In this document: positions 20,517-22,365 of the stretch, in pieces
Layout of the letters: every line of letters begins with the position of its first letter
Numbering within the stretch: the first letter of the stretch is position 1
Program-made: the position numbers and the translations under genes
DNA from: an uncultured Erythrobacter sp.
GTDB lineage: Bacteria; Pseudomonadota; Alphaproteobacteria; Sphingomonadales; Sphingomonadaceae
Direction of reading: 5' to 3'
Length of the DNA stretch: 64,000 nt
NCBI GenBank assembly: GCA_947495695.1
Contig: CANLZP010000001.1
Coordinates: forward strand, 1,199,069 to 1,263,068
The notes under the pieces: generated by a model
Told to the model about the DNA's origin: nothing
Databases searched by the model: none
The model's input: the letters and a program-made list of their open reading frames with translations, nothing else

Positions 20517-20553
20517 GTCTGGTGTACCAGACATTATGTCCGGTTTACCAGAC
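20517..20553. promoter_or_regulatory. Tandem palindromic operator upstream of a membrane protein/regulator operon
   Basis: Two 16-bp inverted repeats lie head to tail: GTCTGGT-GT-ACCAGAC at 20517-20532 and GTCCGGT-TT-ACCAGAC at 20538-20553. Their starts are 21 bp apart, two helical turns, so two repressor dimers could bind on one DNA face. A TTGAAG (-35 like) at 20512 and TTATGT/TATGTC (-10 like) near 20535 would place the first palindrome inside the promoter spacer. The Xre-type regulator of the downstream operon is the obvious candidate to bind it. Confidence 0.65.
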
Positions 20554-20570
20554 ACAGGATTTGTCACGTT

Positions 20571-21194
20571 ATGCCACAAAGTATCACTGCCATGTTCGGC
20601 GCCTTTATCGTCGGCATTTCTCTTGCCTTGTCGTCGCTGCTGCTAGATTTTCCTACTGGCTGGGTAGGCGCGCTTGCTCTTGCTGGATGGGCGGCTTTGG
20701 CGTGGCGGCGATGGGCCAGATTGGAAAGAACAACCGGATTGGAGCCGGGTGCGCCTGAGAGAAACGTCCGTTTCTACGCGGTTGGGACTGCGCTGCTTTT
20801 TGGTCATATGGTCGCGACGCTCGCTTATCCAGACATAGATATTCACGTCGGCAACGGAAATTATCTCGCGATAGATTCATGGACCATGATCGCTGCGATG
20901 ATCGCTGTGGGCTTTGCCGTGAGTAGGGCTGGCGATATCCGCGACGAGCGAGACAGAATGATAATAGCGCACGGCACAAAAGTGGGTTTTCTGTCGCTGA
21001 TTGCAGGCCTTGTCGTGTTTTCGTTTGCTCTGGGTTTTGTGCCGGCAATTGAGAGAGAGTATCTCTCACTTTTTATGGCAGGCAACATTCAAATTGCGAT
21101 CGTGGTCGCATCATTGTTGATCAAATATGCAGTCCAGCTGGTTGAGTATGCCAGAGATACAAATGCCAATACCGTAATTGGCGATGACGAATGA
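20571..21194 (+). CDS. Multi-pass membrane protein (DUF2178-like)
   Basis: This 207-aa integral membrane protein has about six hydrophobic segments. The central RAGDIRDERDRMIIAHGTKVGF resembles the DERD-x-I signature of DUF2178 membrane proteins, which in many bacteria are encoded next to a small Cro/CI-type regulator exactly as here. Its stop overlaps the regulator's start (ATGA). Function unknown; by analogy these pairs respond to membrane-active compounds, but that is not shown by the sequence. Confidence 0.75.
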   Translation: MPQSITAMFGAFIVGISLALSSLLLDFPTGWVGALALAGWAALAWRRWARLERTTGLEPGAPERNVRFYAVGTALLFGHMVATLAYPDIDIHVGNGNYLAIDSWTMIAAMIAVGFAVSRAGDIRDERDRMIIAHGTKVGFLSLIAGLVVFSFALGFVPAIEREYLSLFMAGNIQIAIVVASLLIKYAVQLVEYARDTNANTVIGDDE

Positions 21195-21454
21195 CGGCTC
21201 TTAAAATCGGCAACAACATTCGTAGCTTCCGCTTTGCTCAAGATGAAATGACGCAAGCGCGTCTTGCGGAAATCGTTGGCGTTACGCGTCAGACAATCGT
21301 GGCGCTTGAGACGGGTAGATATGCCCCATCTCTGGAACTGGCCATGAAATTGGCAGCTGCCTTCGCGTGCAGTGTTGATGAGCTATTCTTCTGGAAAAAT
21401 CCGGAATGCGCAAGCGCTGCAATTCATTCTACTTCCGAAAAGGATCCGCAATGA
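21191..21454 (+). CDS. Xre/Cro-CI family transcriptional regulator
   Basis: This 87-aa single-domain DNA-binding protein has the helix-turn-helix MTQARLAEIVGVTRQTIVALETGRYAPSLELAMKLA, a close match to the short YgzD/YozG-type regulators. It has no ligand-binding domain. It overlaps the membrane protein gene upstream and the hydrolase downstream by 4 bp each (both ATGA), so the three form one coupled operon. The tandem palindrome in front of the operon is its likely binding site, which would make it autoregulatory. Confidence 0.92.
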   Translation: MTALKIGNNIRSFRFAQDEMTQARLAEIVGVTRQTIVALETGRYAPSLELAMKLAAAFACSVDELFFWKNPECASAAIHSTSEKDPQ

Positions 21455-22365
21455 CCAAGGCAATCAAGCTTATAAAATGGACCGGAATTCTGGTCTCTGC
21501 GCTTATCGTGCTGGCGGTTGGTTACTACACCTATTTGGTCCTCAGCTTTGATGACCGCAATATGCCGGAGAACCATGGCCGGGTTAATGTCGAACTGTTC
21601 CTGGGCGATGGCGACAATCAACCACTGATCGTCGGGCTCGGCGGGTCGGAAGGGGGGAATGCTTGGGCAAGCGATTATTGGAAGGGGCAGCGCGACAGGT
21701 TCATATCGCAAGGTTACTCGTTCCTAGCGGTCGCATATTTTGGCGAGGAGGGCACACCGCAAGATCTGGATCGTATAGCTTTGGAGGGTGTGCACAGAGC
21801 AATTCGGGAAGCAGCGGCAGACGCCAGTGTAAACGGTGAATGTGTCACCTTGATGGGAGGGTCAAAGGGAGCGGAGCTGGCCCTGCTGCTGGGGAGCCAT
21901 TATCCCGACATCGATGCTGTCGTTGGTATAGTACCCGGAAATGCCGTGTTCCCTGCGCTTACAATTGCGATGAACACGCCTTCATTCTCATTGGACGGGG
22001 AAGGCCTGCCGTTTGTGCCCCTCCCCTTCAGCGCTACATGGCCTCTGCTCAAAGGTGACTTGAGAGCCGTTTGGGAAGAGATGCTGAAAGATCAAAGTGC
22101 TGTAGACAGCGCTTCAATTGCGGTGGAAAATATCAACGGTCCCGTGCTTTTCCTCTCAGCGACGAGAGACGAATTTTGGCCATCAACGGAAATGTCAGAC
22201 TCCATGGAACAGCGGCTCGCAAAGAACGATTTTTCCTATCCTGTAGAACATGTTGCAATCGAAGGTGGCCACATGGCGCCAACTGATCATTTTGATGAAG
22301 TTGAGAGGTTTCTCGCCGCTAACTTGCAGCAAAGAAACCTGAGTGGTTGCTCGGAGCCTTCCTGA
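21451..22365 (+). CDS. Membrane-anchored alpha/beta hydrolase (BAAT/acyl-CoA thioesterase C-terminal type)
   Basis: This 304-aa protein has an N-terminal anchor (residues 7-30, WTGILVSALIVLAVGYYTYLVL) and an alpha/beta-hydrolase domain. The nucleophile elbow is GGSKGAELAL near residue 145, the typical sequence of the bile-acid-CoA:amino acid N-acyltransferase/acyl-CoA thioesterase C-terminal domain. The acid is in SATRDEFWPS and the histidine in EGGHMAP. The ATG at 21451 overlaps the regulator's stop. With the anchor, the catalytic part is probably periplasmic, where a CoA ester is unlikely as substrate. Confidence 0.82.
   Translation: MTKAIKLIKWTGILVSALIVLAVGYYTYLVLSFDDRNMPENHGRVNVELFLGDGDNQPLIVGLGGSEGGNAWASDYWKGQRDRFISQGYSFLAVAYFGEEGTPQDLDRIALEGVHRAIREAAADASVNGECVTLMGGSKGAELALLLGSHYPDIDAVVGIVPGNAVFPALTIAMNTPSFSLDGEGLPFVPLPFSATWPLLKGDLRAVWEEMLKDQSAVDSASIAVENINGPVLFLSATRDEFWPSTEMSDSMEQRLAKNDFSYPVEHVAIEGGHMAPTDHFDEVERFLAANLQQRNLSGCSEPS

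What the first reader, a model, noticed from the sequence alone, without database searches (positions are those of the whole stretch)
20517..22365. Tandem operator in front of a membrane protein-Xre-anchored hydrolase operon
Two 16-bp palindromes (GTCTGGT-GT-ACCAGAC and GTCCGGT-TT-ACCAGAC) are spaced by exactly two helical turns, beside promoter-like boxes. The three genes overlap by 4 bp each. Membrane protein plus YgzD-type regulator pairs are common, but the added membrane-anchored BAAT-type hydrolase, which would sit where CoA esters do not occur, makes this a possible small response or detoxification system without description that I know.
Basis: partly seen in the sequence, partly recalled or inferred. 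Interest (0 to 1): 0.6.

Follow-up and report, generated by a model that had tools for sequence, protein, structure and literature searches.

The report
Self-regulated membrane-sensor operon carrying a hydrolase
A small bacterial operon encodes a membrane protein, a DNA-binding repressor and a membrane-anchored hydrolase, and the twin palindromes in front of it match an operator pattern found before many related membrane-protein/repressor gene pairs, so the switch is a known kind with an unusual enzyme attached.

Summary
Two near-perfect palindromes lie 21 bp apart in front of a membrane protein–Xre–BAAT_C hydrolase operon whose genes overlap by 4 bp. The window is Erythrobacter-like. Five orthologous three-gene operons, from four genera, all keep the tandem sites at the same place, although synonymous sites are highly diverged. 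The 16-bp palindromes are cores of 20-bp dyads. Their outer ATGT-N12-ACAT frame, with 21-bp tandem steps, stands before most two-gene [DUF2178-like membrane protein + CylR2-like Xre] operons examined (26 of 41; shuffles at most 2). This makes the encoded Xre the likely binder and autoregulation the likely mode. The promoter call is weak: no sigma-70 consensus match, though a conserved CTTGA sits in the right place. The hydrolase is a genuine BAAT_C relative with an intact Ser-Asp-His set and a conserved N-terminal anchor. It was found only with this regulator pair, in 5 of about 500 relatives searched. The best reading is a CylR1/CylR2-like membrane-signalled repressor switch driving a periplasm-facing serine hydrolase. 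The switch is a known kind, the hydrolase cargo is a new variant, and signal and substrate are unknown. The family-wide operator rule may be the more useful result.

The parts
20515..20534 (+).
   Evidence: Conserved in five orthologs; fits the family dyad ATGT-N12-ACAT with one mismatch
20536..20555 (+). Operator 2 (ATGTCCGGTTTACCAGACAC); core at 20538-20553; 21 bp from operator 1
   Evidence: Same evidence; the 21-bp step also recurs in sister operons
20511..20540 (+). Inferred promoter: TTGAAG (20512-20517), 17 bp, TATGTC (20535-20540); operator 1 fills the spacer and operator 2 covers the -10
   Evidence: CTTGA invariant in five loci; no consensus sigma-70 match, so inferred only
20571..21194 (+). 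207-aa membrane protein with DERD motif, related to DUF2178-type partners of Xre regulators; about 50 extra N-terminal residues
   Evidence: hhalign probability 97.5% to the sister family, residues 60-195; 66-79% identical in orthologs; dN/dS about 0.1-0.2
21191..21454 (+). 87-aa Xre (HTH_3) repressor, CylR2-like
   Evidence: Pfam HTH_3 50.9 bits; phmmer to CylR2 1utx E 2e-8 and 2xiu E 8e-10; recognition helix identical in five orthologs
21451..22365 (+). 304-aa BAAT_C alpha/beta hydrolase with N-terminal membrane anchor; Ser138/Asp240/His274
   Evidence: Pfam BAAT_C 55.8 bits, cut-off 20.9; aligns to ACOT4/ACOT2; hydrophobic residues 10-34; triad residues invariant

Best explanation
An autoregulated signalling operon of the CylR1/CylR2 type with an enzyme as cargo. 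The Xre protein binds as a dimer to each of two 20-bp operators lying side by side on one DNA face, covers the promoter and represses the whole operon, its own gene included. The DUF2178-like membrane protein senses a membrane or envelope signal and relieves repression. This raises a hydrolase anchored in the inner membrane, with its catalytic domain in the periplasm, which cleaves an ester-, thioester- or amide-like, probably lipophilic compound. Shown by sequence: gene order and overlaps, conserved tandem operators, operator frame shared with sister operons, hydrolase family and catalytic residues, purifying selection. Inferred: repression, sensing by the membrane protein, periplasmic side, substrate.
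For: Five orthologous operons keep both sites and the 21-bp step. 26 of 41 sister pairs have exact ATGT-N12-ACAT upstream, against 0.22 expected and at most 2 in 500 dinucleotide shuffles; other spacings give 0-3. The most frequent inter-site distance is 21 bp (13 pairs). In 82 Xre loci a site lies within 1 kb upstream in 49 and within 1 kb downstream in 2. The genome holds no other copy of the operator with 0-1 mismatch. CylR2 is the closest functionally characterised solved relative, and its partner CylR1 is a suspected membrane protein required for induction (PMC3709268). The hydrolase ortholog occurs only with this pair. All three genes are under purifying selection.
Against: No binding, expression or enzyme data. 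The membrane protein itself has no direct Pfam DUF2178 match. A sigma-70 scan finds no promoter. Operator 2 is partly eroded in two or three of the five orthologs. CylR2's own operator sequence could not be read, so the operator comparison is within Proteobacteria only.
Confidence: 0.6

Rival explanations
1. The switch is as described, but the hydrolase is a passenger: a gene captured downstream of a regulator pair, with no functional link to what the membrane protein senses.
For: No sister pair carries the hydrolase. Some sisters have other downstream genes in the same direction, for example ABC-transporter-like proteins (L086, L090, L103). In one genome the operon sits between two IS240/IS6-type transposase genes.
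Against: The tight gene overlaps and all three genes have stayed together in five genomes of four genera despite high synonymous divergence. No isolated ortholog of the hydrolase was found.
Confidence: 0.25
2. The palindromes are the operator of an unlinked regulator (TetR or GntR type) that controls this operon from elsewhere.
For: GTCTGGTnnACCAGAC resembles operators of such families (from memory, a lead only). A TetR gene lies within several kb in three of the orthologous loci.
Against: No other copy with 0-1 mismatch in the genome; the TetR gene is not in the window; the outer ATGT/ACAT frame and 21-bp step follow the Xre family.
Confidence: 0.07
3. A toxin-antitoxin-like pair (membrane protein as toxin, Xre as antitoxin) with the hydrolase as accessory gene.
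For: Xre antitoxin models match weakly (Y4mF, HipB), and toxin-antitoxin loci are autoregulated through palindromes (general knowledge).
Against: All antitoxin matches fall well below curated cut-offs; the gene order and DERD membrane family match CylR1/CylR2-like regulatory pairs; no defence-system match for the membrane protein or hydrolase.
Confidence: 0.08
4. The hydrolase is a cytoplasm-facing acyl-CoA thioesterase tethered to the membrane.
For: Closest solved relatives are ACOT4 and ACOT2.
Against: Conserved lysines precede the hydrophobic helix and acidic residues follow it, which predicts N-in/C-out by the positive-inside rule; no BAAT N-terminal domain was matched.
Confidence: 0.08

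Closest known systems
CylR1/CylR2 regulator pair of Enterococcus faecalis (quorum-sensing repressor switch)
   Same: Small membrane protein gene next to a small HTH_3 repressor gene; the Xre is a CylR2 relative over the whole domain; in CylR the repressor acts at the promoter and the membrane protein is needed for induction.
   Different: Membrane protein is larger (207 aa; CylR1 has three predicted TM helices). The controlled enzyme gene is in the same operon rather than in a divergent toxin operon. No peptide signal is encoded.
Two-gene DUF2178-type membrane protein + Xre operons of Proteobacteria
   Same: DERD motif, homologous membrane region, TRQT recognition helix, ATGT-N12-ACAT operators with 21-bp steps.
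   Different: No hydrolase gene; operator interior A/T-rich rather than CYGGTNNACCAG; membrane protein about 50 residues shorter at the N-terminus.
BAAT_C / acyl-CoA thioesterase family (ACOT2, ACOT4, BAAT)
   Same: Catalytic domain and nucleophile position (GGSKG against GISLG).
   Different: Membrane anchor, no BAAT N-terminal domain matched; only about 25-36% identical to other bacterial members.

Membership tests
CylR1/CylR2-type regulatory pair | Small HTH_3 repressor homologous to CylR2 | tested here: met
   phmmer E 2.1e-8 (1utx) and 7.8e-10 (2xiu), residues 7-69
CylR1/CylR2-type regulatory pair | Adjacent, probably cotranscribed membrane protein gene | tested here: met
   4-bp overlap, several hydrophobic helices; transcription itself not tested
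CylR1/CylR2-type regulatory pair | Membrane partner homologous to CylR1 | not tested
   CylR1 lies in a toxin locus and was not fetched
CylR1/CylR2-type regulatory pair | Control of a divergent target operon | tested here: not met
   The operators stand before the regulator operon itself; the gene upstream (19093-20334) runs in the same direction, so there is no divergent target. It works like CylR but is not filed as a member
CylR1/CylR2-type regulatory pair | Induction by an extracellular peptide | not testable with these tools
   Needs a reporter assay
DUF2178-type membrane protein + Xre operon | Membrane protein related to the DERD/DUF2178 partners | tested here: met
   hhalign probability 97.5%, E 6e-12 against the sister profile; direct Pfam DUF2178 match absent
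DUF2178-type membrane protein + Xre operon | Upstream ATGT-N12-ACAT dyads, 21-bp tandem step (rule derived here) | tested here: met
   Of ten sites in five orthologs one is exact and nine have one mismatch; step 21 in all five
BAAT_C hydrolase | Pfam BAAT_C above gathering score | tested here: met
   55.8 bits against 20.9
BAAT_C hydrolase | Nucleophile-Asp-His catalytic residues | tested here: met
   Ser138, Asp240, His274 invariant in five orthologs; Ser and Asp aligned to ACOT4
Acyl-CoA thioesterase / BAAT enzyme | Hydrolysis of, or acyl transfer from, CoA esters | not testable with these tools
   Needs an enzyme assay

The most novel reading that the evidence does not exclude
A closed feedback circuit in which a membrane sensor of the DUF2178 class and a CylR2-like repressor detect an extracellular acyl or ester compound and induce a periplasmic BAAT-type hydrolase that destroys it. 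The same switch architecture and 20-bp operator code would be shared by a very large, mostly unstudied family of proteobacterial membrane-protein/Xre pairs with different cargo genes.
Probability: 0.25. Interest if true: 0.65.

Novelty: new variant of a known kind. Interest (0 to 1): 0.42.

Why it matters
Membrane-protein/Xre pairs of this type turned up in several families of the order and further afield in the phylum, yet no paper in the searched library names DUF2178. The operator rule found here (ATGT-N12-ACAT, often tandem at 21 bp) lets such a pair be assigned its promoter and makes autoregulation directly testable. The hydrolase operon offers a pair with a measurable enzymatic output, which could reveal what these sensors sense.

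Tried and rejected
AlphaFold models of hydrolase and membrane protein with two-sequence alignments: mean pLDDT 39 and 47, not used and no fold search made. Genome-contig scan: one relative only, the same contig as G029. Plasmid search: only distant BAAT_C proteins, under 36% identity. Genome-wide regulon: the 16-bp pattern at 2 mismatches is at background (47 matches against 59 reversed controls); at 20 bp only the two operators stand out. Xre near another BAAT_C gene in L143: a MerR-like gene lies between and the Xre is of another subfamily, so judged unrelated. An unlinked TetR/GntR as binder was considered and rejected on the sister-family operator evidence. Literature: the CylR2 operator paper is not held; searches for DUF2178, CylR2-like regulators, CylR2 operators and bacterial periplasmic BAAT gave nothing relevant.

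Full report
What is there. The window (G000:C1:1199069-1263068) lies in a 2.74-Mb Erythrobacter-like genome; the nearest named relative is an uncultured Erythrobacter. The two palindromes are at 20517-20532 and 20538-20553, 21 bp apart. They precede three genes that overlap by ATGA: a 207-aa membrane protein (20571-21194), an 87-aa Xre protein (21191-21454) and a 304-aa hydrolase (21451-22365).

Conservation. Searching 114 genomes of the genus with the hydrolase and about 400 of the family with the membrane protein and then the hydrolase gave four further orthologous operons, G029, G269, G394 and G507; the five operons come from four genera. All have the same three genes in the same order. Upstream, the tandem sites stand in the same place with the same 21-bp step: GTCTGGTACACCAGAC/GTTCGCTATACCAGAC, GTCCGGTGAACCAGAC/GTCCGGTAAACCAGAC, GTCTGGTTCACCAGAC/GTCCTGTAAACCAGAC and GTCTGCTGAACCAGAC/GTATGCTCAAGCAGAC. 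Counting invariant columns by hand, 26 of 41 positions in 20515-20555 are invariant, against 23 of about 150 in the rest of the intergenic alignment. Synonymous distances from the window to the orthologs are 0.7 to over 2 and dN is 0.09-0.23, so the match is not recent identity.

The operator is larger than described. The relatives of the Xre protein sit in operons with a membrane protein carrying a DERD motif. In the 130 bp upstream of 41 such sister operons an exhaustive count of 4-base dyads puts ATGT-N12-ACAT first: 34 sites in 26 operons, 0.22 expected and at most 2 in 500 dinucleotide shuffles, with other spacings giving 0-3. Where two sites occur, the commonest distance is 21 bp (13 pairs), with 26, 42 and 47 also recurring. 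In 82 Xre loci, some with other partners, 49 have the site within 1 kb upstream and 2 within 1 kb downstream. The operators of this finding are the same 20-bp dyads (AAGTCTGGTGTACCAGACAT and ATGTCCGGTTTACCAGACAC) with a G/C-containing interior special to this clade. Several sister loci come from the same genus, so the 41 are not fully independent, but they span several families.

Who binds it. The operator appears with 0-1 mismatch nowhere else in the genome, the Xre gene is in the operon, and the dyad follows this Xre family over Proteobacteria. The recognition helix is identical in the five orthologs. I therefore take the encoded Xre as the binder; this is inference from comparison. TTGAAG-17-TATGTC would place operator 1 in the spacer and operator 2 on the -10, which fits repression by occlusion, but the consensus scan found no promoter.

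The parts. The Xre protein is closest, among functionally characterised solved proteins, to CylR2; one closer solved chain is labelled only as a PbsX-family regulator. CylR2's partner CylR1 is a suspected membrane protein required for induction, mechanism unknown (PMC3709268). The window's membrane protein matches the sister membrane family with 97.5% probability over residues 60-195; the sisters tested reach Pfam DUF2178 only at or below its threshold. The hydrolase passes BAAT_C, aligns with ACOT4 with serine at the nucleophile, and has a conserved lysine-rich start followed by one hydrophobic helix and acidic residues, which predicts a periplasmic enzyme.

What is special. None of the sister operons carries this hydrolase, and no ortholog of the hydrolase was found away from the regulator pair: the next matches are BAAT_C proteins with E 2e-29 or weaker, not next to such a pair. 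Other sisters have other genes just downstream, for example ABC-transporter-like proteins in L086, L090 and L103 (named from their sequence, not tested). The picture is a widespread regulator cassette with changing cargo. In G394 the operon lies between two IS240/IS6-type transposase genes, and its patchy distribution fits horizontal movement.

Verdict. The reading as a self-regulated operon is well supported. The membrane signal, the induction step and the substrate are unknown. Confidence is about 0.85 that Xre binds these operators and about 0.6 in the full mechanism. It is a new variant of a known kind.

Noticed in passing
Sister loci L003-L008, L065-L066, L081-L114, L163-L175, L182-L184: Family-wide operator ATGT-N12-ACAT, often in 21-bp tandem (also 26 and 47 bp), before CylR2-like Xre genes and their membrane partners; often contains TTGACAT, a possible -35.
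   Followed up: yes
window 20437-20460: TCGGCTTTTGGGGTGGAAAGCGGA, upstream of the operon, resembles a dispersed element: eight places in the genome at up to 3 mismatches, none for the reversed control; versions also stand upstream in orthologous loci.
   Followed up: partly
L074 8629-12377: In G394 the operon lies between two same-strand IS240/IS6-type transposase genes, a composite-transposon-like arrangement.
   Followed up: partly
L009 1047-3256, L074 6307-8516, L075 2745-4956: A conserved module (glyoxalase-fold protein, exported unknown protein, tautomerase-like protein, TetR) lies about 0.7-3.7 kb from the operon in three of the five genomes and is absent from the window.
   Followed up: partly
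L086, L090, L103 (after Xre); L095: Other regulator pairs have different downstream genes: ABC-transporter-like proteins 10-14 bp after xre, and in L095 a 361-aa protein with a 4-bp overlap.
   Followed up: no
window 19093-20334: Upstream neighbour: a fumarylacetoacetate-hydrolase-domain protein with a hydrophobic N-terminal helix, an unusual, probably membrane-anchored form.
   Followed up: no
window 18141-18629 (- strand): Small SET-domain protein (162 aa, Pfam SET 36 bits) in a bacterium.
   Followed up: no
L162 881-1504: A proteobacterial genome outside the class has a 207-aa apparent homolog of the window's membrane protein overlapping its Xre gene by 4 bp, without a hydrolase.
   Followed up: partly
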